64,000 nt of DNA from Chrysemys picta bellii (Eukaryota > Chordata > Testudines > Emydidae). The position numbers were made by a program, and so were the translations under genes. Below are positions 1 through 35,802 of this stretch, piece after piece (within the stretch, counting starts at the first letter, position 1; every line of letters begins with the position of its first letter). Location of the stretch: positions 87,899,468 to 87,963,467 of the forward strand of contig NC_088796.1 in NCBI RefSeq assembly GCF_011386835.1. The letters are read 5' to 3'. Below the pieces are notes generated by a model that saw only the letters and a list, made by a program, of their open reading frames with translations, was not told the origin of the DNA and did not search any database.

Positions 1-660
1 GTTCCACTGTGGATAAACACTTAAATAGTCTTTGGGCAGAGTAAGAGAGAATGATTTTGTGGACCAGTGGTTAGGGTACACAACTGGGAGGGCACAGATC
101 CCAAGTCCAGTCCCCCTGCTCCAATGACACTTCCATTATTTAGCTACAGTGGAACAATTTCAGCAGGAGAGAGTGAGGGGGCCCCACATTAGAATATCTC
201 CTAGAGCTCTGGGGCTAGAGTGGGAATTGAACTGGGTCTCCCACATTCCAAGTAAATGTTCTAACCCCTGGGCTAAAAGTTGTAAGTGGGGCATTACAAC
301 CCTGTTCTCCTCTGGCCATTTTATGTGGAGTAAAGCAGGCACCTAACTCATTTCCTCCAGAAGTGGTTTAGGCACCCAACCTGCCTGACACCAGCTGGGG
401 GAGGTCCCATCTGGATCTCTAAGTAGAGATAAGGTTCTCCCTGCAGCCCAGGCTTAGGCGCCTATCTCTGAAAGCGGAGCTCTGTTTGGATGTTGGCTTT
501 TATGGAGCATATTATTAGGCGCCTGTCTCTCCCCATTTGTTGTATAGGAGCCTAGGTGCCTAACAGGCTTTGTAGATCACAGTGCTGTTCCTATGATTTT
601 CTAGGCACCTAAAAGCTAGGTGCCATGCCGCTCAGCGTTGGAACACCTAAGTCCCTTTGT
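1..660. repeat. Unclassified repeat with inverted tRNA-like ends
   Basis: Near the left, 66-115 reads like the head of a tRNA-derived repeat (A-box-like AGTGGTTAGGGTAC, B-box-like AAGTCCAGTCCCC). At 222-275 the opposite strand carries another tRNA-like head (GGGGTTAGAACATT then GTTCAATTCCCAC). From 350 to 640 there are many copies of a palindromic word of the type TAGGCGCCTA, TAGGTGCCTA or TAGGCACCTA. The block is probably an old non-autonomous repeat that starts before the window. The family is not recognised. Confidence 0.5.
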
Positions 661-1722
661 GGATCCTACCTAACTCTTGAACTTTTCATTATAATTAAGA
701 CCCTCCATATTGTGTTCAGTTACCATAATAATTCTCTGGCTCTTGATGATTTGCACATCCTGATTGAGGTGCAGGGTCTAACACTGGATAAGGTACTCCA
801 GAAGATGTCTCACCATGATCTAGTACGAAGGCAGAATGTCTTATCTTCTTTGTAATCTTTTTGATGGTGCCTAAAATCTCATCAGTCTTTTTGCTGCAAC
901 TGAGCAGTGGGTTTCCGTCTTCAGACCCAGGGCCTTGTGTACTGCCTGTGCTGTACATTGGAGCTATTTATTGTATCTCCATGGCTTACTCTTCATTGCC
1001 ATTTGAATCATGCCACATCCTAACACATGTGCATGCATAACTTTGGCTCATAGCTGAAAACACTTGGTGATGTACAATTCATGAATGATTTTTGATACTT
1101 AAATATTTCACTGTGTTCTCCTTGCTTCAGCAGTTGCATTGTTGTTTGGGAAGGCCAGCTCAGAGAAAGTGGGAGCTTGTAGTCAACTTAATTCATTCAT
1201 TTTTCTCAGTTTCCTTGGGCTTAACTGCTGCTCTATTGCCTAACCCCCATCTTTATCTCCACCTGCTCCCTATCTGCGAACTGAACTCTAGCTCTGACTC
1301 CGACTCCGACTCCCTCCCCCACTCCTCTTCTTGATGATATAGAACAGTGAAAAGAACATGTACTGTCATGCAATTAATTCTCCCTTGAGGGGAAAGATGT
1401 AGAGCAAGAGGGAGCTGCCGGCACATCCCACAAGGGCAGTGAGATAGAAAATGAAGTGGCAGGAATCTGGCTGCAGCAAAAAATTATTAATTTTGTGGTA
1501 GCATTGAAACATGCCAAATTCCACAGCTCCACAATTGCAAAGTCCATGGGGCCCCAAGTATTGACTAGGGCTGTTTATTCCTCTCATTGTTTCAGGCTCT
1601 TTGCCGATTTGGATGATCACTGGTTACGCTTGGTTTATGTTTTTGATGTTATGTCTGCAACTAAAAGGGCTCAATGCCTTTTTTTTTTTTAATTAATGAA
1701 AGCTGACTCTCTAGAGCACACA
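661..1722. other. Intergenic stretch without a recognised feature
   Basis: Only a short GACTCC-type tandem (about 1290-1311, in a pyrimidine-rich tract) and a T-run at 1680-1691 stand out. The short ORFs here look like chance. Confidence 0.5.
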
Positions 1723-1895
1723 GGGGGAGGGATAGCTCAGTGGTTTGAGCATTGGCCTGCTAAACCCAAGGGTTGTGAGTTCAATCCTTGAGGGGGCTAC
1801 CTAGGGATCTGGGGCAAAAATCAGTACTTGGTCCTGCTAGTGAAGGCAGGGAGCTGGACTCAATGACCTTCCAGGTCTAGGTATATCTCCATATA
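1723..1895 (+). mobile_element. tRNA-derived SINE with CR1-like tail, copy 1
   Basis: A full-length-looking turtle SINE. It begins GGGGGAGGGATAGCTCAG with an RNA polymerase III A box (TAGCTCAGTGG, 1733-1743) and a B box (GAGTTCAATCC, 1777-1787). It ends in a CR1-like tail (GGAGCTGGACTCAATGACC...). Such SINEs are mobilised by CR1 LINEs that recognise the shared tail. It lies head to tail with the next copy, only about 10 bases apart. Confidence 0.9.
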
Positions 1896-1904
1896 TTTTT
1901 AGAT

Positions 1905-2095
1905 GGTGGGAGGTATAGTTCAGTGGTTTGAACATTGGCCTGCTAAACCCAGGGTTGTGAGTTCAGTCCCCTTGAGGGGGCCCTTTAGGGATCTGGGGCA
2001 AAAATCTGTCTGGGGATTGCTCCTGCTTTGAGCAGGGGGTTGGACTAGATGACCTCCTGTGGTCCCTTCCAACCCTGATATTCTAGGATTCTCTA
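1905..2095 (+). mobile_element. tRNA-derived SINE with CR1-like tail, copy 2
   Basis: Second SINE in the same orientation. It has GGGAGGTATAGTTCAGTGG at the head (the A box is slightly degraded), GTGAGTTCAGTCCCC for the B box, and the tail GGACTAGATGACCTCCTGTG...TTCTAGGATTCT, which is the CR1-type 3' end. Its internal length and sequence differ from copy 1 (for example CTGCTTTGAGCAGGGGG), so it is probably a separate insertion of another subfamily, not a local duplication. Confidence 0.9.
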
Positions 2096-5000
2096 AGAAT
2101 GGTAAATTCTGGGACAAATTGTATGACTGTAGTATACGTATGCCACTGCTAACCTGAATCTAATTTTTTTATTCACTGCATTCTACTTTTCATCTAGCAG
2201 CATATGGGTCAGTGTATGGTATTTAGAGCCAAAATGCATTTTACATTTTCGCACATTAAAATCACTAGCCATATCAAGCCTCCGTTAAAAAAAAAAAAAA
2301 AAAAAAGTAAACATGTTAATCAGCTGATCCACTCAAGTATTAATTGTATTTCCAGTTTGAAGTCAGCAATAAATGCTTTCACGCTGTACATGTCACACTC
2401 AAGAAAATTAACATACAAGTGGGAAAGCTATGGCTCCTGCACCCGAATCAAGCTACAATGCATGTGACCCAAAGCCATCTTTGCTTCCGCTGTAACCTGT
2501 TTGCTATCCAACTTATGTAGCACTGTTCCCTACCTATGTTGTCCAGGCTAAGAAGTAAGTGCTTAATTGGTACTTTAACAGAAATCATCATGTGTTTCCA
2601 TTATTGGTCAAGGTCTGGCATAGGTGGCAGTGGACCTATCCTCACAAGCTAGTCGACTGCAGTCAAGGATGATGAACATTGTAGGCCCATAGTAACACTA
2701 GGTGTGAGTTTGCCTTTCTAGATTAGACTGAACCACATTATGATCGTGTTGTTGAACTGTAAATACTGTTACACAATTTGGTTAGGTCTACAATCAGATC
2801 TATCGATGTATGTGGGGGGAGGAGGGAAATATGTTTTATTTGCAAGGCCATGGTTGTGGGCATTTTTTTGTTACGCTGACTTTTACTGATATTGTAGCTT
2901 GGCCTCAGTCACTCCAGCATTGTTGTGAATATCAGTTTCCTACTAGATGGGCTAAAATGTGACCCTTCCCTTGTTCCAAATCCTCTGCTGTGTATCTCAG
3001 GTCAGTGACAGTTTGCCCATTAACTGGCTTGCCAGTTCCACTCTAAGGTGAACTGTAAAAGAAAAAAATGTTTTGTCCTTGTCCTGTTGTATAATCTAAC
3101 TTGTTTTCCCCAAAACAATATCTATTTTGGATTGCTTTTGAAACAACAGGTTGTCACTTCCGGTGTGGTTCTGGGCGAGATGTTTAGAGGACATGAAGTG
3201 TAATGTCAGAGGAAGCAATAAAATGTGCTGCAGTTCTTTCACCCCCAACTAATTCTTATGTTGTCCCCTCTTTTCCTCAGCTGGCAGCAGGGAAAGCTGC
3301 AGTTCATATGACATCACAGTCAGAGCGTCTTAATACCTGGGTAAGACCCTCCAGCAAAGAGAGAGAAGTAAAGTTGATATTTCCAATATCAAAAGCAAGT
3401 AGGAAAAAACAGGTTGTTTGAGAGGGGGAAAACTTGAGACAACTTTTATATATCAAGAACCAAGCAAGGTCAAAACACTTTTAGTTTGCAATTTACTTTT
3501 ATTATTATTGGATGCAAATTTTCCAGGACTGATGATTGATTCATGTTTATCCTCTGAGTGCCTTATTCAGCTCCGAGTTATTTCCCCTTATACAATGAAA
3601 GCACGAAGAATGAGTATTTGTACTTGTTCTCCCTTACTGGCCTCTGCAGAAAACCTGTGAAATGGGGCATAGCTCTTTTATGAATAGGATCCCTTAGTCA
3701 CTACCTCTGTGGGGGAAACTATATTAGAAGTCATTGCAGTAACTCAGCATGCTATTAGACAGCTTCCTAATTCTTATTGAATTTAAAAGACAGAATCTGA
3801 ATTGCTGACTGAATATAACCCAGGTAATTAAAAATGTGTTTCTGAATTTTGGTGTGGTACAGAGAATGTAGGGGAAAGAGTAGCTATGCTCCATTGTGTT
3901 TGAGCACACTACTGAATAAGTTACCAGCAGAGCACTGTTCATAGGCTTTGTGCAAGAGGGTTTTTTTAATTCCCCCACTGTGTTGAATTTATTTCTATCA
4001 CTACTCATTAACTAACTCATTTTTAAGTTAGTTTCTATTTCTCCTTTACAGTAAAAGACAGATTATTTCCATTGCTTAGCGGTTAGGCACATTTATCATG
4101 CTAAAATAGTTAAACCACACACAATTTATTGTGGGAAAATATTTTACAAGGTAAATATTTGCCCAACTCCTCCTTCACCCCTCCGCCCCCATTTTTAAGG
4201 GTCCAGTACCATGAAAAGATCGATTTGAGGTGCGTCCACTCCAGTAGTCTTTGCATAGAGAAGAGTTACATTTGATGCCTCTACAATACAAATGAAGCAT
4301 CACATGGGGAGAAAAAAGTTTTTAGTAATGGAAAGTATATATAGTCGTAAAGAAAACCAATCCTGCTTCTAGTGACAATTGTTTTCAGTCCAGTCAACTC
4401 CATAACCAAAATAACTGAATTTCTTCTAGTCTTTTAGATTAGGATCTTTATACCAAATAATACATTCAAAACAACCCTCACCCTTGATCTAAACCTCCCT
4501 TGGGATGGTAGAGTAGACCAGCAAAGAAGTCTCTCCAAGAAATCCACTTAATTGCTCTGGCATGGCAGAGACTTTCATGCAGTTTGCTGTGCTTAGCGTG
4601 AAACCTAGTCTAATTTCAGCGATGCCCCTTTGCTAAAGTGTTTCTTCAAATCAACAGGTCTCTTCTCAACACCTTTTTGTATGTGGACATAAGTTGTTTT
4701 GGTATTTGCAATACAGAATTGTCATACCACCATACAATGAATCTTAACAACAATAAGGGTCAGCAAGTGGCTTGTGCTAGGTAACTAGCTGGAACCACAA
4801 TAATGTCCTTTTTTTGTTTTTAGGGGTGGAGAGCAGTTGGTGCTTTTTTCTTACATGCTTGGTAGCAAAAAGCCCTTGAAAAGATAAATACTAAGAGGTA
4901 AATGTTTGTCAGCTGATTATTTTAGCAGGCACATAATCCTTCCTTTGATGTCTACCAGGTTCAATGAAATCCTAGTACTACCAGGATTTAGTAGTAGATA

Positions 5001-5169
5001 TATTAAGATTTTTTTTCTGTGATCTCTCCTGCAACGGAAGCAGTAGTAAAATTTATAACAGTGTCACCATAAAGGAATGCTTGTAAAAGCTCTCTGTATA
5101 TTCTTAACTGTCCCATTTTGGAGGGGTCCCCTCTTTAGGTTACAAACAGTAAGTTTTTAAATATAATTA
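2096..5169. other. Intergenic stretch, mostly featureless
   Basis: Contains an A-run at about 2287-2306 and one exon-like segment at 3281-3340 (see findings). No recognisable protein or RNA gene was seen on either strand. By human synteny this is the gap between the AOPEP/mir-23b side and the convergent FANCC gene, which is not reached. Confidence 0.5.
3281..3340 (+). other. Exon-like segment with canonical splice sites (unproven)
   Basis: A strong polypyrimidine tract and acceptor (CCCCTCTTTTCCTCAG) end at 3280, and a donor-like GTAAGA starts at 3341. The 60 bases between are open in one frame (LAAGKAAVHMTSQSERLNTW). It does not match AOPEP or FANCC as I know them. It could be an exon of a non-coding RNA or coincidence. 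Confidence 0.2.
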
Positions 5170-5245
5170 AGGGCCAGATGCTTAGCTGGTGTATATCTAC
5201 ATAGCTCAATGGAGTTGAATTACACCATGTGATCATCTGGCCTGG
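5170..5245. repeat. Short hairpin MITE (GGGCCAGAT family)
   Basis: GGGCCAGATGCTTAGCTGGTG at the left pairs imperfectly with CACCATGTGATCATCTGGCC at the right around a centre containing AATGGAGTT. It resembles the TAA-flanked element at 42904-43044 and is preceded by TTAA. Degraded, so old. Confidence 0.55.
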
Positions 5246-5607
5246 TATTTATAGTAATACAGTTATGAATGGGAATTACTTAATAGTCATGTGACTGTCA
5301 TGTGTTCTGTCACAGGTCTCCCAATGTAATTTAGAAGTGTTGTGTTAACTAGTCTTCCCACAATACAGGAGCAAAGTTACTCCTATTATTACCATAAGGC
5401 AGAGTCACATTGTAGATGCCTACAGTTTCACTCTACTTTGGTGCTATAGCCATTAGAATATCGGTCCGAGAGGACAAGATAATTTGTTGGGAAGAGCTGA
5501 AGTGAAAACAAGCTCCCCCACTTTAAAATGTTAGCAAGGCTTGTGAAAATAGTGATACAAGCAGACTGTATAACTAACTACATACCTTTTGTGTGTTCTA
5601 CTAAAAG

Positions 5608-5630
5608 AAAAAAAAAAAAAAAAAAAAAAA
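5608..5630. repeat. Poly(A) run
   Basis: About 23 consecutive A residues after ACTAAAAG. It is not attached to a recognisable retroelement. It lies about 150 bases beyond the mir-24-1 hairpin in transcript order. Confidence 0.8.
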
Positions 5631-5776
5631 GGAGTTCTCTATACAATAGTGAGGAAGCTTTTCTTCCTTAGAACACCTCGTGTGTTCAAAAGCACAGTAT
5701 TACAATCTGTACTAGATTTGGTTTCAGACAGAAAAAGTTACTTTTCATAGGCACATCTTTTTGCTTTAGGGCTCGA

Positions 5777-5844
5777 CTCCTGTTCCTGCTGAACTGAGCC
5801 AGTATGTAAAATCAGAACTGATATCAGCTCAGTAGGCACCGGAG
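5777..5844 (-). ncRNA. MIR24-1: mir-24-1 precursor
   Basis: This is the hairpin of microRNA 24-1 on the minus strand. The 3p mature product is at 5780-5801 (starts TGGCTCAGTTCAGCAGGAAC) and the 5p arm at 5817-5838 (starts TGCCTACTGAGCTGATATC). The 5p arm identifies it as the 24-1 copy, the partner of mir-23b/27b, rather than mir-24-2. It lies about 440 bases downstream of mir-27b, close to the spacing in human. The precursor is 68 nt, from CTCCGG to AGGAG, with roughly two loop substitutions compared with human as recalled. Confidence 0.97.
5777..5844 (+). ncRNA. Possible antisense mir-3074 hairpin
   Basis: The complementary strand of mir-24-1 also folds, and human databases record mir-3074 on the strand opposite mir-24-1. 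The plus strand at 5782-5802 reads GTTCCTGCTGAACTGAGCCA(G), which agrees with human miR-3074-5p as I recall it. Sequence identity here is forced by conservation of mir-24, so it does not show that the antisense strand is transcribed in this animal. Confidence 0.3.
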
Positions 5845-6283
5845 GACGGGTCCATCAACAATCTGGAACAGCAGCAGCCGTAAAAAATCATTTCCTGCAA
5901 ACAATACATATTGCTAAGCAATAAGCATAGAGAAAACACTGGCTAAAACTTTATCAAGCATAGCTTTACAGACTTAAGTTGGTTTAGAACAAATAACATA
6001 TTTGTCTCCAACTTTTAGAAAAGCATTGAGATTACATTACAATATGTATAAATTTTTCAGACTTATTGGCTGCTTCTTTGCTTGTAGCCAAACCTGATAG
6101 TTTACAGTGCATTTCTTACATTCTTGACAGGAAAAATCTGTTCTTTTCCAAGTCTCTACCATCTCTTATGCTCTGCAAGCTCAATTTCACACACACTATA
6201 AAACTATACCCCAACCCACTGTGTGCCTCAGCCAGCAAACTACTTTGCCCTGGGTAGGTTGACTTTTAAGAAGTTTCCCATCT

Positions 6284-6380
6284 CACCTTCTCTTCAGGTG
6301 CAGAACTTAGCCACTGTGAACAAAGAGGAAATCAATCACTGTTCACCAATCAGCTAAGCTCTGCACCTTGTTAGAGAGGT
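6284..6380 (-). ncRNA. MIR27B: mir-27b precursor
   Basis: This is the hairpin of microRNA 27b on the minus strand. The mature 3p product lies at 6300-6320 with seed TTCACAGT, and the 5p arm (6341-6362) begins AGAGCTTAGCTGATTGG. The outer stem (ACCTCTCTAACAAGGTGC pairing with the 3' side ending CACCTGAAGAGAAGGTG) matches the human precursor almost base for base; the loop differs by about two substitutions from the human sequence I recall. It is the middle member of the mir-23b/27b/24-1 cluster, whose products act in the cytoplasm as Argonaute-bound repressors of mRNAs. Confidence 0.97.
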
Positions 6381-6493
6381 CTTCGTCTCAAAGATAGGAT
6401 GAAGGTCTTCAATGGTGCATTTTCTCCTTTTGTTTGAATTTTTTTTTGTAGAGGATTCCAATGCATATGGGAGATAGGATTTTCATAATAGGA

Positions 6494-6590
6494 GGCACAG
6501 TCATGGTTATGTGGTAATCCCTGGCAATGTGATTTTAATCTTAAATCACAAATCAGCATGCCAGGAACCCAAACAGCCACAACATTAAGG
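6494..6590 (-). ncRNA. MIR23B: mir-23b precursor
   Basis: This is the hairpin of microRNA 23b on the minus strand. The 3p mature product (6511-6533) begins with ATCACATTGCCAGGGATTAC, identical over its length to vertebrate miR-23b-3p as I know it, and the 5p arm (6550-6571, starting TGGGTTCCTGGCATGC) also matches. The arms pair around a loop near 6534-6549 (GTGATTTAAGATTAAA on the minus strand), which fits mir-23b rather than its paralogue mir-23a. It is the first member of the cluster in transcription order, about 114 bases upstream of the mir-27b hairpin. Ends were placed by alignment from memory with the 97-nt human precursor and are approximate. Confidence 0.96.
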
Positions 6591-7010
6591 GACACTTGTG
6601 TAGTCTCTCTCCCATCACACAATCAGGTTTAAAACAGCAATGATTGTAAATCTGGTATCTTAAACACTTTCTGTGACAATATCTTTAAGATCTCATCTCC
6701 TTCAGGTAGCTGATTAAATAATTTTATTTAGATCACCTGTTTCAAACGTCAGAACCAAGCTGGTTATAGGACACATGCAGTAACTAGCATAGGGAAGTTA
6801 CACAAAGGCAATCACCAATGGAGTTAAAATAATTTTAACCTTTTTACCTTAATAAAACTCCCCTAGGTATTTAAGAGACTCTTGGTAGAGAACACCATAT
6901 ATTGCAGCAGACCAAACCATTCTAACTGCATATTTCTGGCCCTTGGTGCTGTTAAAAACATTACAAATAGGCTCAGCTGTTAATAGTGTTTTTTTGTTTG
7001 GGTTTCAGTA

Positions 7011-7280
7011 GGTGGTTCTCAGCCTAGATGATCTAAACATGGCTATGCATGCAAACATTTTGTAGTTGGTCTCCTACCTGTTTTAGAAAGCAAGACACCC
7101 CCCCTCCCCCCAATAACTGGTATGCTGGCACTCTAAGCCTATTCCAAACCTATCACCGTTTTCTTGGCAGGCATAGGCATATAGTCACTGTCTATGTACC
7201 AGAAGAATGGTGCTATTCACAAATAGCTTGTTTTTTTAGCATGTTGAAGACCTCTGCAAGAAAAAGGTTGAGAACCCCTG
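7011..7280. mobile_element. hAT-type MITE between the microRNA cluster and AOPEP
   Basis: The left end GGTGGTTCTCAGCCT and the right end AGGTTGAGAACCCCTG are inverted copies of the hAT (Charlie-like) terminal repeat type CAGGGGTTCTCAA. Nothing inside codes for a transposase. The flanking 8-bp duplication is not clear. Confidence 0.6.
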
Positions 7281-7464
7281 GACTAGAACATATACAGTGA
7301 AAATACTGGGCAACTCAGGGCTCCCCCCCCCCCATAGGCATAGTTTTACTTCTATTTAGGGGGGCAAGGGCTGGCATGGTTGAAGCCAGCTCCGCATAGC
7401 AGGGTCCAGGGAGGGAGCACCAAGACCACTCTGCCTGTCTGGGCTGTGGGGGAATGCAACCAAA

Positions 7465-7706
7465 AAAATAACTCAAAGTTTGAAAACCGCGCAGGGTGCA
7501 GGCAAGGGGGAACTAGGGGCAGCAGGGGGCACAGCCCTGTGCCGCTCCCAGCTTCAGGACGGAGGCTGCCACCTTCAGCCCCCCACCACTCCTGGCTGGG
7601 GTGGAGGGGTTGCCAGCTTCAGTGGTAGGGGTTGGGGCACCGGGTTTGAGCCATGGGATGCTGCAGCCCCCCTGAAAGGGTTCACAGACCCCTGATTGAA
7701 AACCAC
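7465..7706. mobile_element. Second hAT-like MITE, GC-rich
   Basis: CTCAAAGTTTGAAAACCGC at the left and GATTGAAAACCACTCT at the right are inverted versions of a TTTCAAA-type hAT terminus, preceded inside by GACCCCTGATTGA. The interior is GC-rich and gives false ORFs on the plus strand. A C-run (7323-7333) precedes it. Confidence 0.5.
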
Positions 7707-8672
7707 TCTCCTAGTCCATATAAACGCAAATGGAGCCTGATTTCAAGCATTGCCTACGTGTACAGGTTTGAAGGGAAGACAAATCAAGGGGTCCTGTTCA
7801 GTACCAAATACTGAGCAATGTTTTTGCTAAGTTGTTGTCTGAATTGTGTTACCACAAATCAACTGTAAAGTTATGTGAACAACCGAGGAAAACAGGCTGT
7901 CAGATGGCTTATATCATTACACAAAAATCTGCGGTATGCTGTACTGGAAAGGATCTTCATACCAAGCCTAATTGACTATGGGTTAAACATGCATGTACAA
8001 ACACCATAAAGTAATCTCAGGATAATCAAATAGGATGAAAGAAGGGAATATGTCACTATCTATATAGTATTTGGTGTAAAAGGCCAGTTTATATAATGTC
8101 TTTCATCTATGTGGTTATACTTAACTGCAATTTTGCTTTTTTTCCAACCATGTTTAGTGAGATGACTTCTACTTTTGTCCCTTAGCCACTAATTTCAAGT
8201 AGAACCAGAAGCAAATCAAAATAAAGCTATAAAATGTTTATCTTTATGTGACAGTCATTAGTGTATCTTTATAAACAGGTACTTCCTAGCATAACCAACA
8301 CTAATCTTAACTATCTCTCACAAAATACTCAAAAGCATGTAAGCCACACTAATTTGAATCCAGAACCACGCTGGACAACTAGTTTGTAAGTGTATGAGTT
8401 CAATGCCTCATGTGGACACAGATTTTGTTAAACAACTCCAGTAATTGCCATCCCCTAGCAAGTTCATATCATTTTCTATTTGCAGGTGTGAGTGCAGCCA
8501 TGTTTAAGAAGTGTTGTAAATGTAGAAGTGTCTTAGTAAAAAAACCTCTCTCTTCTCCATGCTCCTCAACTAGATCCCTTGTGCAGCAGTGATCCGTTAC
8601 TCCAGCGATGGTGTGGGGAAAAAAAAACATGCAAGAAATTTAATGAGTGATTCTTCGAGCTGAATATCAGCA
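7707..8672. other. Spacer between MITEs and AOPEP 3' end, no feature seen
   Basis: AT-rich sequence without a recognisable gene. If AOPEP read-through supplies the microRNA precursor, this would be part of that transcript. If the cluster has its own promoter, it could lie here or in the MITE region. Confidence 0.4.
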
Positions 8673-8692
8673 AATTCTACATTGTGCAAGAG

Positions 8693-8698
8693 TTTATT
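8693..8698 (-). terminator. AOPEP: Polyadenylation signal of AOPEP
   Basis: The plus strand reads TTTATT, so the minus strand has the canonical hexamer AATAAA about 75 bases after the AOPEP stop codon. Cleavage would be expected roughly 10-30 bases further on, near 8665-8685, giving a 3' UTR of about 100 bases. If this is the main signal, the canonical AOPEP mRNA ends about 2.1 kb before the microRNA cluster. Other, more distal signals may also be used. Confidence 0.55.
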
Positions 8699-8772
8699 TA
8701 CTGCGCTATGCATATTCTCTCACTAAAGAGCAGGTTGAGAATTAAATACTTTAATCAAGAAAAATCACCTCT

Positions 8773-8913
8773 TCAGAATAACATCTCTGCCACCACTTTG
8801 GCTGAGGACACATCCATTTGTTTTTGTGTTGCAGCAAAGCATTTATAGGCAAGTTCCTGTTGTTTTGCATCTTCATTCACCATTAATTCTCCATACAGGT
8901 AAACACCCATAGC
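8773..8913 (-). CDS. AOPEP: AOPEP terminal coding exon (aminopeptidase O C-terminus)
   Basis: This is the last coding exon of aminopeptidase O, an M1-family zinc aminopeptidase that removes N-terminal residues from peptides. Read on the minus strand it follows a pyrimidine-rich acceptor ending TTGCAG at 8914-8919 and encodes 46 residues, starting AMGVYLYGELMV and ending AKVVAEMLF, then TGA at 8773-8775. These words match the C-terminus of vertebrate AOPEP as I remember it. The exon begins in phase 0, exactly continuing the frame of the exon at 12303-12389 (...EKFLKEDQ joins AMGVYLYG). It belongs to the C-terminal alpha-helical domain, not the catalytic domain; the HExxH zinc site is not in this window. 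There are no stops or frameshifts. A search of the 46 residues against turtle AOPEP would settle it. Confidence 0.9.
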   Translation of the reverse strand, partial: AMGVYLYGELMVNEDAKQQELAYKCFAATQKQMDVSSAKVVAEMLF

Positions 8914-9620
8914 CTGCAAGAGGAAGAAAACACCCCTTCATTCCGTAACCAATTACAGCTAGCTGGCTTATTTTTAAAGACAAGCTTGTTTCACATAGCT
9001 CCCAACACAACGCATACAGTACCCAATCTCATTTAATGTACAAAGCTATTTTTCCTTTAACAGGTACATTTTTTTTTCTCCAAAATACAGTTCTCTGTCT
9101 GTCAGTCTCTCTTGGAGACTATTCAATCGGAGGAGGATTGTCAGTGTTTTATTAAGTATGTTACCAAAAGAACATTTACACTGGAGATTGATAATCAGCT
9201 AGAGTCAGCATCTTATGTGCGGAAAATGCTTTTCTGCTGTTTCTTCCCCTGCTTTTCAGGTTGAAGTCCATGTTCTCTCTCTCTCAGCCACCAACTGAGC
9301 TGTTTCCAAATATCTCATGAGAGGGCAATTTGCCTATCCTCTAACATGACAGAAATTTGAATGGTCTTTAGTTGATTTTCTTTCCCAGATGGGACCTTTC
9401 CACATGCAGGGATGGTCACTGGTATGTATCAATTGAAACAATCCATTCTGAGATGCCTACTTAATTTTGTTAACTAAAATCAATTGAAAATGATGGGTTT
9501 CTGTTTCAGGCTGGTCCCTTAAAGTGGATACACATACAGCAGTTACAACTCTGGTCTGGTAGGAAAAGGCAAAGCTCTCCCTAATGCTGATTTTGAGAGT
9601 CTCAATCAGGAAGGAAAATT

Positions 9621-9670
9621 ATGGGATGAAATCTTGGCCTTACTGAAGTCCATGGAACCAAGATTTCACC
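9621..9670. repeat. Short palindromic hairpin (GATGAAATCTTGG...)
   Basis: GGGATGAAATCTTGGCC and ACCAAGATTTCACCC are inverted around a centre with TGAAGTCCATGG. This is the size and composition of a family of 50-150 bp hairpin MITEs with a central AATGG/CCATT word that recurs in this window. Confidence 0.6.
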
Positions 9671-10107
9671 CTGGGTTACCATATCCTTTTCTGAAGATGC
9701 AAATCACTTGAGCTAGATTGACACTGGTCCTGATCTTGCAACCTAACCTGATCACAATGTGTCTACTGACATAAACATGGGCTGCAAATACAAGTGTGGG
9801 TTTGCAAACTCAGTCCCCTTATGTTGACCAGAGTTTTTACAAATGTTGAGTTGACTCTTGCAGTCATGCCCAAGTGAACAATCCTGATTAGTAAGTGGTG
9901 GGGGTATGTTTTTATGCAATGTAACATACCATCTAGTGCCAGAAAGAAGAATGAAGTTACCACTAAAAAAAATACATTTTAATTTAATATTTCTTGAAAC
10001 ATTTATTTTCAACCAGCTCTAGAAATTATCATCAGAATTGGTAATTTGGTAAAATTAAAACGTGTTTGTGGACAGTGTTGTTTGCCTTGGAACTGAAGAC
10101 TCTATAC

Positions 10108-10441
10108 CAGGGGTCGGCAACGTTTGGCACGCGGCTCGCCAGGGTAAGCACCCTAGTGGGCTGGGCCAATTTATTTACCTGTTGACATGGCAGGTTTGGC
10201 CAATTGTGGCTCCCACTGGCCGCAGTTCGCCGTCCCAGGCCAATGGGGGTGGCGGGAAGCCGCGGCCAGCACATCGCTCGCCCGTGCCGCTTCCCGCAGC
10301 CCCCATTGGCCCGGGACGGCGAACCGCGGCCAGTGGGGGCCGTGATTGGCCGAACATGCCGCGTCAGCACGTAAATAAACTGGGCCGGCCCGCCAGGGTG
10401 CTTACCCTGGCGAGCCGCGTGCCGAACGTTGCCGACTCCTG
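10108..10441. mobile_element. GC-rich foldback hAT MITE with target-site duplication
   Basis: A 334-bp element that is one long inverted repeat. It starts CAGGGGTCGGCAACG and ends CGTTGCCGACTCCTG. Arms of about 150 bases (including CGCCAGGGTAAGCACCCTAG and its inverted partner) meet at a CpG-rich centre near 10270-10290. It is flanked by CTCTATAC (10100-10107) and CTCTAGAG (10442-10449), 6 of 8 identical, which fits the hAT duplication pattern with a central TA. It has no transposase. ORFs across it are palindrome artefacts. Confidence 0.85.
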
Positions 10442-11843
10442 CTCTAGAGCTTCTCTGGGTTCAGCTCCTTAGCAGGCAGAGTATCCTGGAGGCAGAGTTC
10501 CATTCCTTTTCGCAGAGAATTGCTAAATAGTTGGGTTTGGTTCCAAATCAGAATGAAACCAAATTTTGAAATATCAAAATCCTCCACAAAAAGAAATCTC
10601 TTTTTTGCTCAGCTGTAATACTTTCACCCAAATCTCAAACATTAAAATGCAGTAAACACTGGTTTTCTGTTATCCCAAATTGGATTAGTCACATTTGCAT
10701 TTTTTGCAGACTTTTAAAATAACGACGTTCTTTCATGATCAGTAAGGCCAAGAAAGTGCTTTGATTTCACATGTAATCATTCCAGAACTTAGTTGTGCCA
10801 CAAATTGTACACCCTACTGGAGTAAATTATAAGAAGGATCTCAAAGATAACAGCTTAAAAACTCTGCAGTTATGATTTCAAAAATTCTTTCCCGACAAAG
10901 CAGAAAAACATTGATCCTTATTTGGCATAATCACCATTCTAAATATATTGCTGTTCAACTTGGCTTTTAATAGAGAGCTGAAGGATACAGTTGCTTTTCG
11001 TTTGCCTACCAGGGGCTAATATGACAGCTTCCATGTATCTGAAATTGCATCCCTTTATATAAAACTTAAAATGTGCACAATACACAAACATATATTTAAA
11101 AAAAATCTATGTAAACGGGTTTATCAGAACAAATTGTTTGCTGTGGATTTTGGACTAGTTCTCTGGCTTCTCCTGCATATTAGGAGTGTAATCTAGATCT
11201 AGAAGATAGTGTTCAGGAGACTAATAAAAGCTGCGCTGCTGTAGCAAGACAAAGTTGCAATCTATTGTCATGAAAAATACAGCATGTTATCTGATCAGCC
11301 ATTAAAAAAAAATCTCATATGTTGCAAATAAAGTGTGAATTGTTATAATTTAGTATACTGAATGTAGCAGCACCAATAATGTCACTGTGTGTGTGTTGGG
11401 AGGATGCATGTACATATTTAACTTAAAAATTGTGAGTAAAATAAATGTGAGTGATCTTGTCAGAACAGCGTGATTTAGGCCCTACTGCATATATGTAGAA
11501 TTCTTTGACCTCATCAACAACTGAGCAAGAGTTTTACAACTATGGTTAAGCGTGTAGTTGAGGCTTAACCTAGTTATAAAACTATGTTCTAGCCTAAATC
11601 TCTACCTAAGCTATCATCTGGACTTTTAACTTGATTATAACAAGGTTTTGCTCCATCCACATTCATTGGTCAACCACTGTTAACTTGGTTTGGCTGAAAC
11701 AGAGTTTAAATTGCTTAACCACCATTGTTAAACCAGCATCTTTTGCCTAGAAAGACAGGACCTTGGAAACTACTTTTGAATATTATAAAAGCCTGATAGT
11801 GTAGGTCTCAGATGCAGATATCTGACAATTCACAGCTAGAGAG

Positions 11844-12231
11844 TACTGTATATACTCGTTCATTAGCCGGTTCATTTATAAGCTGACCCCCCCCAAGATG
11901 GTTAGGTAAAAATAGCAAAAACTGTATGACCCTTTCATAAGCCGACCCTATATTTCAGGACCTGAACGTTTTGTTTACCTGGAGCGTTCACAGTCATGGA
12001 GCCCCTCAGCTCCCAGTGGCCATGGTTTGCCGTTCCCAGCCAGTGGGAGCTGAGGGGCTCCATGCTTGTGAATGCTCCAGGTAAACAAAACGACAATGTA
12101 TTAGATATTCAATTCAATGATTCCATAAGAGTTTAAAATCATCAAATTTTGGTGTAGACCCGTTTATAAGCCTCTTTGCTGCGTCACTTTTTTACCAAAA
12201 GTATTCATCGTATGAACAAGTATATACAGTA
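11844..12231. mobile_element. TA-flanked MITE with a second internal palindrome
   Basis: The outer ends TACTGTATATACTCGTTCAT (11844 on) and ATGAACAAGTATATACAGTA (ending 12231) are inverted repeats with TA at both borders, as in the Tc1/mariner superfamily. Nested inside, GTTTTGTTTACCTGGAGC (from 11968) is matched perfectly by its inverse at 12074-12091, with arms continuing through GGAGCCCCTCAGCTCCCA. No coding capacity. It ends about 70 bases before the AOPEP penultimate exon. Confidence 0.75.
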
Positions 12232-12302
12232 AGTTAAAATCAGTTTATACTCTGACACAACACAGGGTGATTATTTTGAAAATGTTAATAAATTAAACTG
12301 AC

Positions 12303-12389
12303 CTGATCTTCCTTGAGGAATTTCTCAATGTCAGCATATCTTGTTGTATATTTGTGTTTAACAACAAGCTCACACCATCGATGTCGAAC
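12303..12389 (-). CDS. AOPEP: AOPEP penultimate coding exon
   Basis: This is an 87-base, 29-codon exon of aminopeptidase O on the minus strand. It has an acceptor AG immediately before it (12390-12391 on the plus strand reads CT) and a donor GT right after (12301-12302 reads AC). It encodes VRHRWCELVVKHKYT followed by ADIEKFLKEDQ, matching the conserved helical C-terminal segment of AOPEP. Both ends are phase 0, so skipping this exon would keep the reading frame. It is separated from the terminal exon by 3.4 kb and from the upstream exon by 23.3 kb. The exon is short and AT-rich but the codons are intact and the splice sites canonical. Confidence 0.9.
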
Positions 12390-13951
12390 CTTTGGAAAAG
12401 GAAAATAAATATTAAACATGCATACTGTGTCGGTGTAGATATCATTTGATACAATGTCACTCAACTTTTTAAAAGTTTTAAATTTTTTTTTAAGTGTTTT
12501 GGAGGAATGGCAGTTTGTGAAACATTTTCAAGTACTTCAGTAGGACTTGCTAATCTGGCTTAAAAATCTATGTGCCCCTAAATATGGACACAAATGAAGT
12601 TCCTATTTTTAAAGGCAGATGCTGTTTAGAGCATTGAGTCATGTGCCTCTAAAAACTATTAGATCATTAATACTCATCTGACACACTAAAAATAAAATGT
12701 GCATCTATAGTAGGATTTTTGGACCCCAACATATCTGGATAAACAAGCATCTGTAATTGTCAAACCAATCCCAATCACAACTTAAATGTGTTGAATCAGT
12801 GAGTCTGTTATTTTCAACATAACTATTATTCTACAAAACTACTTTTAAAAAATTACACTTAGCATTAGAATAAATAAATACTTTTTTCCTTTTCTTTTCT
12901 AGTTTTACAAAAGAGGAAGTTATTGCTTCAAAGCTCTGGAAGCAGATGTAAGAAACAATTGCATTATTTACTTTAGGCAAGTGTCTAACCTAGGGGACAT
13001 GAGGCTAAAACACATTTTTGTACAAACTGTATCTGGGGGACAAGTGCTGCATCTATCCTGGGATGAAAAGGATAAAAGGTAAATGAGAAAACATGAAATA
13101 AATAATTTACATTTCAGCAAACCACAGTTTTGCCAATACAGCTTGTCAGAGTGTGTCTAACATCTATTCATGCTCAAGTTGCTGATTTGCTGTACCGAAT
13201 GCACTTCAGTGAAGCAGTTATTGGCTTATGCAAACAGTTAAAGAATAATATTGCTACTAAAATGGGCAATATGGCCAGTACAGCTTTCGAATGCAGCTTC
13301 TTTACAAAGCTTTGGCATGCTTTATATTTCCTTGCATTTTGATGTCTTTTTGATTTGTTTTTAACCATTCACTTCTGTGGCTTTAAGTGTCATTTTACAC
13401 TGCATCACGGCTTCTTCAATTATACTCAATGAGCAGTCAAACATTTTATATTCTATTATTGGCACAGCATTCCTCAAAAATAAAGCAGTTAAGTGCATTA
13501 AAAAACTACTTGTATTACAGCTTGCTTTTACTGCCTTTCAAGGGAGAGGCACTTTATAACAATCCGTTTTTGCAGTAATAATAAAATATAAGTAGTTTCA
13601 ATATTTTTGGCAGGTTGAGTCTAAATTATATAATTATCTACTAATCTAGCACAAATCACTTCTTAAAGATCGATTTACCGATAAAAAACCAGGGAAAATG
13701 AAAGCTGGAAACAGGTCTTTTTTGTGAACAATTTGGAGGTAGAAGAGGATGCTTTAGTCAATTTCAAGTTGATGCAAGCTATTCCTTAAAGCTCTACAAT
13801 CCCCCCAACTCTTTGTTCACCCTTTACCATTACTACAACAAGGGATACAATTTTGAACTTCTAAGGATTCGGCAGTCAGCCATCATCAGCTTTCCATCAC
13901 AGGGAGGAATTTCAGAGGCTTATATAGATGAATTGACAGTCTCATTAAACT

Positions 13952-13994
13952 CATCACTTGTCATGAATTAAAATTAAATTCATGACAAGTGATG
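13952..13994. repeat. Perfect 18-bp inverted repeat
   Basis: CATCACTTGTCATGAATT and its exact inverse are separated by 7 bases. It would form a stable cruciform or hairpin but no flanking duplication or tRNA-like feature was seen. Confidence 0.85.
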
Positions 13995-14245
13995 AATGGT
14001 CACAGGCTTTGGAAAAATTCTCCTTGGGTCCTTGATTTCTTCACTGTGTGGCCTCTTCCATAAAATTTCTGGAATGCAACTTCTGACTACAACAAGGGAC
14101 TTCGGAAACTCAGGGTTGGGGGGTAGGTGTTTGGGATCATTTATTAAACAAGTAATAATAAATATATAAAACAAACAATAAAAAGACTAATTGTGTGCTG
14201 GGGATGTAGTCTGTTTCTTAAAAGTTACTGCTGACAAGCTAAAAG

Positions 14246-14373
14246 TATTAGAATCCTACATGCAGTACAAACTCTCTGGCTATATGAAAGAAAAGAGGCT
14301 CTTATTGTAATATGTATTTTTTATGTAGACACTTAGAATCTTGCATGCAGAACAAACTCTCTGGCTATAGAAA
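14246..14373. repeat. Pair of diverged ~40-bp direct repeats
   Basis: ATTAGAATCCTACATGCAGT followed by ACAAACTCTCTGGCTATA (about 14246-14286) recurs at about 14331-14371 with a few substitutions (CTTAGAATCTTGCATGCAG...). A local duplication with about 45 bases between copies. Confidence 0.8.
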
Positions 14374-17300
14374 TTATGGCAGATTTCCAAAACTGAGGTG
14401 CAGAGAATCACCAATCGGGGTAGAAGCAGCATGTCTGTTATCCTCAGATGGCATGTTCGCCTCCTATTTTCACAAAGCCGAAAAAGGCACTTTCAATACA
14501 ACGAACTGCAGGAGAACCAGTCATTATTAGCGCTTTTTCAAATACAATATTTCAGTCATTCCCACCTGCTTTCTAATCCATCATATGTAGTGGACTCCAG
14601 TAAACAGTGGCTGAAGATGGTTTAGCTGCTAGAGGAGTTAAGGCTTGCTTTGAGCATGTAGTGATCAAGTCTTTTTGTAACGTGGCACTAAATGTAGTTT
14701 GTCCTAAACCACAATTGCAGCTAAACCAGTTCATATACACATGCTATCAACACAGCAACAGGTAATTTTTCTAATATAGATCATGCGCTAATCCCTCTCA
14801 CATTACGATTTTTACGCACATATGAAGGAGAGAAAAAAAAATTCCCTCAGTTCCTTGCTTTTCATCCAACACTTAAAGCAGGTAGCATTGCTTTCCTGTG
14901 TAATTAATGTGTCATGTTTCTAAGCACTTTAATGAACATATATAAAAGGAAATATTGAAAACTAAGTAGTTTGTGGTGGGACAGAAGTAACCACACTCTA
15001 TCTTGTGTAGGCTCTTCTGTATCCATCCCTCCCTGGTGCAAAGGAAGAGGGAAAGGGGAAGCAAAGACTCATGGGTAAAAATAAGAATTCACTACACTTT
15101 TTCTCATATTGAGAGCCATGTCAGACTCTCCCTTCTTGCTCTACACATTTCTCTGTGCTCTTCTGCATAGCTCAGAGAGATGCACCGTGTGTTTTTTTGG
15201 CTAGTTATACCATATTCAGCACAAACTGAACCTGAAAAGTAATTTATAGCAACTCTTCCTGTTGCTGCTGGCAGAGTTGATTGTGCTTTACTTTGTCTGG
15301 CTCTTACGTACTCCGGCTCTGAAATAACACCTGTAACCACGCACAAACACTGGGTCTGGGTTTGGCAGCTGCAGGACATACATGCCAAACTCTGGAATGT
15401 AATTTATTTTTTCAGTCTCGGAATCTAAGTTTATGGTTGTCCTTTTGACAGTCTCAACTTCTCTGCCTGATGCTCAGGAGGAGGGAGGAAAAGTGATTTG
15501 GGGGATGTAGAACTGACTGCAGGTCTTGTAGGAGGTCAGGTTCCTGATGGATCATCTTGAGCTACTAAAAATGTTCTCCCCTTCCAATTGGTATTATGGA
15601 TTATGCTGAAGTGTCTACCAATTTTCCATTCAATAGCTGAAAATTTCCTGTACATATCTATGAACTTTGCAACACATCCCACAATTTTGTCAGCACAATT
15701 TGGGTTCATGGACTGTTGCAAATATGTCATTTGAAAACATGCCATTTCAATTTAGTAATCAAAGGAAGTTATCGGAGTGGAGGGTTATTTTGTTTTGTTT
15801 TGCTATCCTTAAGACCAAAGTCTTAAATGGATGCTGCTGTCAGGTTGCATTGAGCCCCCAATTTAAAGCTTTGTTTAAAAAAGAGAGAGAGCTTAAAAAA
15901 AAAAAAGACCGATAAAAATGTTCATTTTTAAAAAAAATTCTAAGTTTTAGACAAATGGATAATGCCCTGCAGTACTGTTCACAACCCAAACACTGTAGCA
16001 TTTTACTAGTACAAATGAACTTGAAAGTAAAACTGACTAGAAACCAAAGTGACACTGATTAGTTTATTTTCGAACCCACAAAAAAGTAAAAAAGTAGCTA
16101 ATTATATACAAATAAATTCTTAAATCAGTTATTACGAATATAAATATAGTAGGAAAATTTGTTTTTACAAATATGAGCCAACATTTTTTTTAAATGGATG
16201 CTTAAAGCTGGGATACTAAATCCATATTTAAGTGCCCTGATTTTCAAGAATGGTGAATGCCCAGCAGCTTCCCAATGACTATGTTTGAAGACAACATTTT
16301 TAGACCATCTCAAACAGTCCTTGAAGTGAAGCAATCACTTTTAGTATTTGAAACCCACCTACCTTCCAAATGATTTCAAAAATCAAACAATGGCCAGACA
16401 GGCATAGTTAAAATACACATAAAGCTTATACAATATATTGTAATAATCAAGGTCACTGAAAGCCTCCATCATACACATGCAGAAAACATTTTACCTCTGA
16501 GGCTTGCAAATAAGATTTAGAAAGCAAGTAATTTAGACCATGCATTTTATTAAAAACAAAAAAAAAATCTAAAAAGTTTGTACTAAGCCTTTGGTCTGCA
16601 GAATGGAGACTAGCTTCGGGGGAAATGAGTAAATATTGCTAATAGCTGGATCCAATTAAAAAAGCTCCAGGAGACAACAAATCTAAATCTCAGAACAAAA
16701 ACATGTTTTGAGACCCTAGAAAATAGAGGGTTTTTTAAACCTGAGTACACTTTTAGTAAGTATTATTGTCCAACTAAAGCTCCAAACAGAACATAACTTG
16801 GACCAAAAAGACTTCTAAGATATTTACAAACCATGTGTTCAACTACACTATTGAAACTAAAGACATGTAATATGAAAAGTTAATCAAAACTATAAATACT
16901 ACAGTAACTAACCACAGATAAGTCCATTGTAAATATAATGGACAACAGGAGCTAGAGATTCTTTGCAGACTTCAGTCTTGCAGAAGGAGAAATACAAAAA
17001 CTTTTGCAACTAATCAAACAATGGATTATTTTTAATTAATGAGGAGGAAGCTGAATATCTCTGGAGCCCCGGAATGCTGGCCTGTTGATTAGATCATCAC
17101 CGATTTCTTCCATCTGAAATTATTTATTTCCTTTCAGCATAATTCTCTCTTCCTAGCTTCTCATAAATTGGATTCAGCTATACTATCTTCAGGGATAATT
17201 AGTGAACACTGCTGAGTGCCGCAGACTAACATTTTGGATTTAAAAGTAGTTTTTACAATTGGTTAGGGCAGAAAACGTAGGGTTTAGAAAACTGCCCACA

Positions 17301-18716
17301 CTTTGCCCCATTATTGTAACAAAATATTTTTAATGATTTAATGATTTTTCTATATCCTTGTACCCACTTAAATTTTAAAATAGCTGAGATGGCTGCTATT
17401 TTAAATTGAAATTAAGTAGTTGCACCCACTAGGTTTCATGCTGTAAGGTTTGGGTTTTTCAAATGAACATGAGTATTTGGTACTCAGACTCAGGGTTTTT
17501 AGCATGCAAATCCCGTGTCAGTAGAAATGTACTCCTTAGTAAGATTTTCAGTGATGCTGAATCAGCTCTGAAGGAGGTGGTGTTGATAATAATGTACGGA
17601 TCATGTGTGCGCGACAATTGCATTGACAGCGTATCAGCTCAGCAATGTGCTAAAATATTCTTACTAGACAAAATCCTATTAAATGCACACAGAATGTATT
17701 CATCATTCTTTTGTCAGTCATTCTGCAGTTGGAGAATACTAAATGCGCCAGAGTTTGTCATCAAGAAGTACAAGCAGGGAAACTACCTAGCAGTTTCGTG
17801 TATTTTGCCTTCCTTATGGTGTCAAAGCTTTCATTGCAAGTAAGTGACTAAGTTAAAACATGTAGTTCTGTAATCCCCATATGTCCTTTCAGTCTGCCTA
17901 TTCTCGCTGCGTTTTATTAAATTCTGACCTACAACAGAACATGACTGCAATGCTTTTGTTCATCTTTCATTATATGCAGATAAAGTAATGATAGGCTAGT
18001 GATATATAGCGCTCAGAGAAGAACGGGGCAAAAAACCAGTACAAACACCGATTAGTGCAGCAGCTTCAACAACTGCGGGAAGAGAGAGTCCCCCTCCTAT
18101 ACATGAAAGCTTTTCCCATTTATGGTGCCATAATCTCCCTCATATGGAGCAAGGCTTCTATATCACAATGCCTGTGATATAACGGAATGTTTAACACAGC
18201 ATGCAAACTGAAAAATGTTTTTTAAAAATGAACTTTAGTTAAAAACAAATACTCTTCTTGTACTTGAACCAAATGCTTTCCTTCCTCTCTCATTTTCAGT
18301 CTTGCGCATTCAGGATGTTTGTGTTTAAGTAGCAACAGGCTGGAGATGGCTGAAAAGATGTAATCAGCTCCACCTTCTACAGCTGTTTTGGAAATATTTG
18401 TTTAATTTTTTTTTGCTGCAGTACCATTGGCTTTTGGAGTCACTTCTACATAGTGGTTGCCTTCGTGCACCACTAAAGACCAAAGACTTCCTCTGCTCCC
18501 ACACATCACACTGCAGAGTAGGGGCAAGAACCATGCCCCACTTAGCCAATGGAGAATGACAAAAATAATCTCCATCTCCCGCTCTGATTTTACTACTATG
18601 GCTGAAACTGCCCAGGGCTCAATTTCTCAGCCATAGTAAGTCTGACCATGAACCTATAACTCATCAACTCTAACTCATCAGCTATGACATGATGTCTCCA
18701 ACATCTGAATCAAGTA

Positions 18717-18735
18717 TATATATATATATATATAT
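18717..18735. repeat. (TA)n microsatellite
   Basis: A run of about nine TA dinucleotides within the 23-kb AOPEP intron. Confidence 0.9.
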
Positions 18736-18850
18736 GCAGTAGTGGGACAGATTATATCTGAAGCAGGTACCCACTGTCTAATTCTCTAGCATATGAAGTA
18801 ATGCCCATAACCCTTAAACTGCCAAAAAAAAATTAAAAGTGTTATTGTAA

Positions 18851-20868: not shown

Positions 20869-21184
20869 ATTATTATTCAAGTTTTTAAAAACTGCAAGTA
20901 GAAGAAGTTTTATGTTCCATTCAATAAAGAGAAAAACGACTTCAAGTACCAATTGGCCAGCACATCATCCCTTTGGTTACACCAATGTATAGGTTTGATG
21001 ACTAGGTAGTATCAGTATCTAAAAATACCTTCTTTCACCTCCACTTTGCTAGGAAACTTTGTCCCTTCCTCCCAGACAAGCAACTTGGTCCATGCATGTG
21101 TCACCTTTGGCTTCATTACTATAATTCACTGAATTGGAAGTGAAACATGAAGAGGATGCAAAAGCTGTAGCCAATAAAGAATGT

Positions 21185-21740
21185 GGCGCCTATTTCATGT
21201 CCCTCCACTGGCTCCTAGCTGAAGACTTCAGTCCTAATTTTCAAAACAGGGAATGCATCAAGCCCCAACTACATTAAAAATCAAATTCTGATCTATGAAC
21301 CAACATGACAACTGTGCTCCTCTGGTACAATGTAGATCACAAAGTCCAGGACAAAGCATGAGAGAGATGGGGACCAAGCCTTCTCAATCATGGGGATCTG
21401 GCTATGGAACAATCTTTAGAAGAGATTAGGTGAATCCAGAATCTGACCACCCTTAGGAAATGCTACAAAACCTTCCTCTTCCAAAAGGATTTCCACTGTA
21501 AGAATGACACTGTCAACACGGTCACCCCCTTCCATCTCATAACCCTACCAAACAAAATAAAGTAAAATAATAAAAATCAAATACTCTACTCCACTTCAAA
21601 AAAGGAAAGCCAGAGACTCCATAAAAGCCAACAGGGTCTTTGCTATTGCTATTGATTTTACATGGAACATGCTCAGATACAGTGGTGATGAGTTGCAGTA
21701 TAAAACCGTAAAATAGACAGATTAGACTAGACAGACCAAC
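21185..21740 (+). mobile_element. Degenerate non-LTR retrotransposon 3' end (CR1/L2/L3-like)
   Basis: The sequence resembles the C-terminal end of a LINE reverse-transcriptase ORF and its 3' UTR. It has a CCACTGGCTCCTAGCTGAAG segment (typical of an LHWLP-like motif), later GGCTATGGAACAATCTTTAG (LWNNL-like) and TGCTACAAAACCTTCCTCTT (KTFLF-like), then a 3' UTR with GCTCAGATACAGTGGTGATGAG. All frames are broken, so it is ancient. The exact family needs a repeat library search. Confidence 0.55.
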
Positions 21741-26500: not shown

Positions 26501-26867
26501 TATCAGTTCACCATCAAATAGAACAGACAGAAACCTACCTATCCATTCCCTTGTTCTGTAGCATACCTAAATGGTTTTGTACACAGATCTCTCTGTCTCA
26601 TCACCTTTTTTATTGCTCTGTAGACTTGTTTCCACGGCCTCTGGTCTTTTGGTTTCATAGACCATCCCTGTCCCTATCTAGAATAAAGAACCAAGAAAGC
26701 TAATTGTGGAAATAGCTTAATAAGAAGACTGCTTATTACTGATTACCAACGTTTGTGACACACAGCTGTAAGCTTTTTCTATTGTCTCAATCAGGGTTGC
26801 CAACTTTCTAATTCCAGAAAACCAAACACTCTTGCTCCGCAGCTTCCCCGAGGACACGCCCCTGCCC

Positions 26868-27890: not shown

Positions 27891-28078
27891 AGAAAGTCTG
27901 CAACAAAAAGTTTATAATGTTGCTAGACAAAGGTGGGGAGAAATGTATGCTACATTGGCTCTTCTGCAATTACTAGTCAACATTCATTTTTTAAGAAATA
28001 ATACATTTCTTTTAGAGTTCCCTTCTCTTTTAAAAACTTATTATGAAATGAATACCCACATATTTTGTCGTCATCAAT

Positions 28079-35685: not shown

Positions 35686-35802
35686 CTCTGAATCCTGCTC
35701 ATCAAGGTGGTATGTTTTCTCTAAGCACTGCAGAGTTCTGAGACATAACGTCTTCTCCTCCAACAGAGATTCCAGAAGTAAGACCAGCTGGTCCGGGAGA
35801 AG
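35686..35802 (-). CDS. AOPEP: AOPEP antepenultimate coding exon
   Basis: This is a 117-base, 39-codon exon of aminopeptidase O on the minus strand, flanked by acceptor CTTAG (35803-35807) and donor GTAAT (35681-35685). It encodes LLPDQLVLLLESLLEEKT and continues to LEKTYHLDEQDSE, which matches the leucine-rich start of the AOPEP C-terminal helical region. The frame passes without a break to the next exon (DSE joins VRHRW). In human AOPEP the residues just before this segment are a basic, Lys/Arg-rich stretch linked to nucleolar localisation; that exon was searched for up to position 64000 and not found, so the upstream intron is at least 28.2 kb. Recognition rests on recalled human sequence plus perfect frame and splice agreement. 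Confidence 0.88.

What the first reader, a model, noticed from the sequence alone, without database searches (positions are those of the whole stretch)
5777..6590. Conserved mir-23b / mir-27b / mir-24-1 cluster at the turtle AOPEP locus
All three hairpins are present in order on the minus strand with intact mature and star arms. Only a few loop changes separate them from the human precursors I recall. Short frames on both strands across them could hide the cluster from a protein-based annotation. The 5p arm identifies the third hairpin as 24-1, so this is the 23b cluster, not the paralogous 23a/27a/24-2 cluster.
Basis: partly seen in the sequence, partly recalled or inferred. Interest (0 to 1): 0.75.

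Follow-up and report, generated by a model that had tools for sequence, protein, structure and literature searches.

The report
Conserved mir-23b/27b/24-1 microRNA gene cluster
This is the ordinary, well-known three-microRNA cluster that vertebrates carry at the end of the AOPEP gene, found intact in this animal, so it confirms expected conservation and is not a new kind of feature.

Summary
Three microRNA hairpins lie on the minus strand in the order mir-23, mir-27, mir-24 (6505-6578, 6293-6371, 5777-5846), each above Rfam's gathering score. All 6 recalled human mature/star arms of the b cluster match without a mismatch, and the hairpins fold better than nearly all shuffles. It is the 23b cluster: a-type arms fit worse, and the genome carries a separate, diverged mir-23a/27a/24-2 cluster on another contig. 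The locus is AOPEP: three coding exons upstream on the same strand, joined, give the Leuk-A4-hydro_C domain; FANCC lies tail-to-tail beyond the window. One refinement: the cluster is not between coding exons but 2.2-3.0 kb downstream of the AOPEP stop codon, either in an intron of the 3' UTR or past the main poly(A) site. The strand antisense to mir-24-1 matches the recalled mir-3074, but that follows from conservation of mir-24-1 and is no separate evidence. No expression data were available, and the species ('turtle') could not be tested. Known cluster, expected orthologue; interest low.

The parts
6505..6578 (-). mir-23b precursor hairpin (5p arm 6550-6571, 3p arm 6511-6533)
   Evidence: Rfam RF00642, 79.2 bits; both recalled arms exact; fold z -4.07; CNNC motif 16-17 nt after the 3p arm
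6293..6371 (-). mir-27b precursor hairpin (5p arm 6341-6362, 3p arm 6300-6320)
   Evidence: Rfam RF00644, 90.4 bits; both recalled arms exact; fold z -6.39
5777..5846 (-). mir-24-1 precursor hairpin (5p arm 5817-5838, 3p arm 5780-5801)
   Evidence: Rfam RF00178, 88.4 bits; both recalled arms exact; fold z -3.62
5775..5844 (+). antisense hairpin to mir-24-1, possible mir-3074
   Evidence: recalled miR-3074-5p and -3p exact at 5782-5802 and 5820-5841; fold z -5.17; sub-threshold mir-24 match 42.8 bits. Follows from mir-24-1 conservation, and the antisense strands of mir-23b and mir-27b fold well too (z -3.33, -5.82), so not independent evidence
8773..8913 (-). last coding exon of AOPEP, stop codon at 8775-8773
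   Evidence: translation ends VAEMLF*; completes Leuk-A4-hydro_C to the profile's end; no Pfam hit on its own
12303..12389 (-). penultimate coding exon of AOPEP
   Evidence: weak single-exon Pfam hit, E 0.13; AG/GT flanks and open joined frame; joined hit 3.8e-21
35686..35802 (-). third-from-last coding exon of AOPEP
   Evidence: weak single-exon Pfam hit, E 0.024; AG/GT flanks and open joined frame; joined hit 3.8e-21
8693..8698 (-). AATAAA, possible main AOPEP poly(A) signal 75 nt after the stop
   Evidence: motif scan, which also lists ATTAAA at 8755 and 8644 and AATAAA at 6728 before the cluster; use not tested
5847..5894 (-). possible start of a terminal non-coding exon carrying mir-24-1 (acceptor-like ...TTTGCAG|GAAATG)
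   Evidence: one of 12 acceptor-like AGs in the 27b-24-1 spacer; suggested by chicken annotation in PMC3675212; unproven

Best explanation
This is the orthologue of the vertebrate mir-23b/27b/24-1 cluster. It is probably transcribed with, or as a 3' extension of, AOPEP. [quoted passage not shown] Shown here: hairpins, arms, order, strand, AOPEP and FANCC synteny, and a separate a-cluster paralogue. Inferred from known biology: transcription, processing and targeting.
For: Three Rfam matches over cut-off in order on one strand; 6 of 6 recalled arms exact; folding z-scores -3.62 to -6.39; AOPEP coding exons upstream, joined domain E 3.8e-21; 13 of 13 Fanconi_C matches at E up to 10, 9 of them over the cut-off, on the + strand of the same contig just before the window; paralogous 23a/27a/24-2 cluster elsewhere. 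In print: most vertebrates have both paralogous clusters, with cluster b intronic in Aopep (PMC11263685, passages); human, mouse and chicken share the co-location with C9orf3 (PMC3675212, passages).
Against: No small-RNA or transcript data. An AATAAA 75 nt after the AOPEP stop could end the AOPEP mRNA before the cluster. The 24-1 hairpin has no CNNC motif in the 30 nt after its 3p arm, and 27b has one only at position 27. The antisense strand of mir-24-1 folds at least as well as the sense strand (z -5.17 against -3.62).
Confidence: 0.97

Rival explanations
1. It is the paralogous mir-23a/27a/24-2 cluster.
For: Same families and order; recalled miR-23a-3p and 27a-3p differ by only 1 base each from the window.
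Against: Recalled 23b-3p and 27b-3p are exact; 23a-5p has no site within 6 mismatches; 24-2-5p has 6 mismatches. A separate a-type cluster is on C22, with recalled 27a-3p exact and 24-2-5p at 2 mismatches, though recalled 23a-3p and 27a-5p fit there poorly without gaps (4 and 9 mismatches). The AOPEP/FANCC surroundings are those of cluster b (PMC11263685, passages).
Confidence: 0.01
2. A decayed or unprocessed copy of the cluster (pseudogene).
For: No expression data.
Against: Arms unchanged and folds intact; native synteny. The mir-24 genome search listed only this locus and C22 over the cut-off, but it scored 62 of 360991 candidates, so that count is a lower bound.
Confidence: 0.01
3. The cluster is a separate transcription unit with its own promoter, not part of the AOPEP transcript.
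For: It lies 2.2-3.0 kb after the AOPEP stop and after an AATAAA. A CpG-rich stretch lies upstream at 9901-10700, and two GC-rich stretches near 26.8-27.3 and 28.2-29.1 kb.
Against: The human cluster is reported in intron 14 of C9orf3 and rises with a short C9orf3 transcript (PMC7017312, passages; intron 14 also in PMC5355333, passages). The CpG-rich stretch at 9901-10700 holds an inverted repeat with 164-nt arms, so it may be a mobile element and not a promoter. A promoter was not tested.
Confidence: 0.2

Closest known systems
Vertebrate Mir-23b-27b-24-1 cluster (human chr 9, in AOPEP/C9orf3)
   Same: Order, strand relative to AOPEP, exact recalled arms, AOPEP and FANCC surroundings
   Different: No difference was found in what could be compared; loops were not compared with human because no human precursor was held
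Chicken C9orf3 cluster (PMC3675212, passages)
   Same: Co-location with AOPEP; there mir-23b and mir-27b are annotated in intron 15 and mir-24 in the 3' UTR, which fits a cluster downstream of the stop codon here
   Different: Exon structure downstream of the stop is only guessed here
Paralogous mir-23a-27a-24-2 cluster (present here on C22)
   Same: Same three families and order
   Different: Hairpins share 53 of 78, 57 of 80 and 61 of 72 aligned columns with the window; no Pfam domain at E up to 0.1 in the 3 forward frames of 9 kb around it
mir-3074 (antisense of mir-24; [quoted passage not shown]
   Same: Recalled arms exact on the + strand
   Different: Expression unknown; conservation is forced by mir-24-1

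Membership tests
mir-23 (RF00642), mir-27 (RF00644), mir-24 (RF00178) | Covariance-model score over the curated gathering score | tested here: met
   79.2 vs 52, 90.4 vs 48.5, 88.4 vs 50 bits
mir-23b/27b/24-1 cluster | Three hairpins, same strand, order 23-27-24, within 10 kb | tested here: met
   All within 5777-6578, minus strand
mir-23b/27b/24-1 cluster | b-type arms and 24-1 type 5p arm | tested here: met
   6 of 6 recalled arms exact; a-type arms worse
mir-23b/27b/24-1 cluster | Located at AOPEP, tail-to-tail with FANCC | tested here: met
   AOPEP C-terminal exons upstream; FANCC on + strand; the tail-to-tail order in human is recalled
mir-23b/27b/24-1 cluster | Intronic in AOPEP | tested here: inconclusive
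   Downstream of the stop codon; only a 3'-UTR intron would make it intronic
functional microRNA | Small-RNA reads with precise 5' ends on both arms | not testable with these tools
   No read data held
mir-3074 | Antisense transcription and processing | not testable with these tools
   Only sequence and folding

The most novel reading that the evidence does not exclude
AOPEP has an intron in its 3' UTR that carries mir-23b and mir-27b, while mir-24-1 sits in the terminal exon. Cropping of mir-24-1 would then cut the AOPEP mRNA's 3' UTR, whereas cropping of the other two would not, so mir-24 output and AOPEP mRNA would trade off, in this animal as in birds.
Probability: 0.15. Interest if true: 0.35.

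Novelty: already known. Interest (0 to 1): 0.1.

Why it matters
It adds one genome in which both the b cluster and a diverged a cluster are present. For the window itself it is a routine annotation.

Tried and rejected
Own-genome searches were answered twice only: mir-24 and FANCC's Fanconi_C. Those for mir-23 RF00642, mir-27 RF00644, PF01433 and PF09127 met a busy machine, as did (a wrong family number, RF00103, of mine; RF00178, answered later). So copy number in the genome is known only through mir-24, as a lower bound.

I looked for the human short-C9orf3 promoter with the four primers printed in PMC7017312. Three gave nothing closer than 6 mismatches; one had a 4-mismatch site at 28789, closer than all of 30 shuffled versions of that primer (best 5). 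That control speaks for the site; I still rejected it because the paper puts the promoter upstream of exon 10, whereas 28789 lies between the third-from-last and penultimate coding exons found here. Exon numbers were not matched to human ones.

A second near-match to recalled miR-27b-3p lies at 55791-55811, + strand, with 17 consecutive identical bases; among 300 shuffles of that probe the longest match was 14. It is not a microRNA gene by the tests run: four folds around it gave z between -0.19 and -0.80, and Rfam found no mir-27 there. I do not know why it is there; a repeat is likely.

Of 20 Rfam matches up to E 10 in 5400-7000, 3 are over cut-off, 3 are the antisense strands of the same hairpins and 14 are sub-threshold and likely chance. 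Literature: no paper held all of mir-23b, mir-27b, mir-24-1 and turtle; six held microRNA, turtle, miR-23b and miR-27b, none of which looked from the listing like a turtle study; MirGeneDB plus Chrysemys picta gave one paper, on prediction (listing); turtle plus small RNA sequencing, conserved miRNAs and miR-24 gave two (listing; passages of one, PMC7931589). Two turtle microRNA papers named in its reference list are not held. These searches do not show that a turtle cluster is unpublished. Searches failed through slips of mine and were replaced.

Pfam scans covered the three minus-strand frames of about 1-15000, 15000-29996, 30000-44996 and 49000-63996. 44997-48999 and the plus strand were not scanned, and short exons are easily missed, so further AOPEP exons may exist. 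The CpG scan used GC of at least 0.50, not the 0.55 its printed heading says.

Full report
What was checked. The finding names three microRNA hairpins on the minus strand at 5777-6590. A scan of the whole 64-kb window against all 4227 Rfam families returned exactly three matches over the gathering score, and they are these: mir-23 at 6505-6578, mir-27 at 6293-6371 and mir-24 at 5777-5846, all minus strand, in transcript order 23-27-24. All 6 of 6 human b-cluster arms that I recalled occur without a mismatch. The sense hairpins fold with z-scores of -4.07, -6.39 and -3.62 against 200 dinucleotide shuffles, of which 1, 0 and 1 folded at least as well. Chance is excluded.

Which cluster. Thirteen recalled arms were compared. 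The b-type arms are exact. Of the a-type, 23a-3p and 27a-3p differ by one base each, 24-2-5p by six at the same place, 23a-5p has no site within six mismatches, and 27a-5p has only a six-mismatch site elsewhere. A mir-24 search of the window's own genome (2.37 Gb, 9732 contigs) listed three matches: this locus and C22:2503028-2503097 over the cut-off, and the antisense strand here under it; 62 of 360991 candidates were scored, so this is a lower bound. [quoted passage not shown] There recalled 27a-3p and 24-3p are exact, and the mir-24 5p arm is closer to 24-2 (2 mismatches) than to 24-1 (5); recalled 27a-5p fits poorly (9) and 23a-3p is broken by a one-base gap. So both clusters exist and the window holds cluster b. 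Aligned hairpins of the two clusters agree in 53 of 78, 57 of 80 and 61 of 72 columns.

Which locus. Three minus-strand exons upstream of the cluster (35802-35686, 12389-12303, 8913-8773) have one open joined frame, with AG/GT flanks shown for the first two and a CAG before the third. Alone, two gave weak Pfam hits (E 0.024 and 0.13) and the third none; joined they give Leuk-A4-hydro_C at E 3.8e-21, complete to the profile's end. The last exon was found with a recalled human AOPEP peptide, so the choice of AOPEP among M1 aminopeptidases rests on that recall and on the neighbour FANCC. A Fanconi_C search gave 13 matches at E up to 10, all on the plus strand of C6, 9 over the cut-off; the last of these ends at 87878456 and a weaker one (E 0.046) at 87884664, about 14.8 kb before the window.

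A refinement. The AOPEP stop codon is at 8775-8773, so the cluster lies 2.2-3.0 kb beyond the coding sequence. An AATAAA stands at 8698, 75 nt after the stop. In print, the human cluster is placed in intron 14 of a C9orf3 transcript (PMC7017312, passages), and in chicken mir-23b and mir-27b are in intron 15 but mir-24 in the 3' UTR (PMC3675212, passages). A non-coding last intron that contains 23b and 27b, with mir-24-1 in the terminal exon, would fit all this. Here there is a donor-like GAG|GTGATT just after the stop (seen) and 12 acceptor-like sites in the spacer between 27b and 24-1, too many to choose from sequence alone. This is inference.

Mechanism. [quoted passage not shown] The sequence shows the substrates; transcription and processing were not observed. 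A CNNC motif follows mir-23b at 16-17 nt; mir-27b has one only at 27 nt and mir-24-1 none within 30 nt, which is common among microRNAs (recalled).

Antisense. The plus strand over mir-24-1 matches both recalled mir-3074 arms and folds well. Since those arms are the complement of conserved mir-24-1 arms, and the antisense strands of mir-23b and mir-27b fold well too (z -3.33 and -5.82), this is no separate evidence of an antisense gene.

Species. The genome has no name, and 'turtle' is neither supported nor contradicted by a test here. The window's contig is 133.6 Mb long and that of the a cluster 23.4 Mb.

Verdict.

Noticed in passing
L002:917-1001 (G000 contig C22): The paralogous mir-23a hairpin lacks one G in the mature 3p arm relative to the recalled human sequence (GG instead of GGG); it still folds (z -4.23). 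PMC4144971 reports fewer than 3 different miR-23a-3p sequences among its species (passages). It may be a real variant or a homopolymer error in the assembly.
   Followed up: partly
window 55791-55811, + strand: 17 consecutive bases identical to the recalled miR-27b-3p, longer than in any of 300 probe shuffles, but no hairpin and no Rfam mir-27 match there; probably part of a repeat, unexplained.
   Followed up: partly
window 10100-10449: An inverted repeat with 164-nt arms, 85% complementary, 22 nt apart, lies in an AOPEP intron within the CpG-rich stretch 9901-10700; probably a mobile element remnant.
   Followed up: partly
window 23151-23303, minus strand: GIY-YIG domain just under the cut-off (E 0.00024), probably from a Penelope-like retroelement (label recalled).
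   Followed up: no
window 63414-63998, minus strand: 194-residue open frame that resembles the C-terminal part of CR1-type LINE reverse transcriptases of sauropsids (recalled); no Pfam family.
   Followed up: no
window 26801-29200: GC-rich stretches (to 68% GC) inside the 23-kb AOPEP intron; one holds a 4-mismatch site for a human C9orf3 promoter primer, closer than 30 shuffled probes but at a place that does not fit the human promoter.
   Followed up: partly
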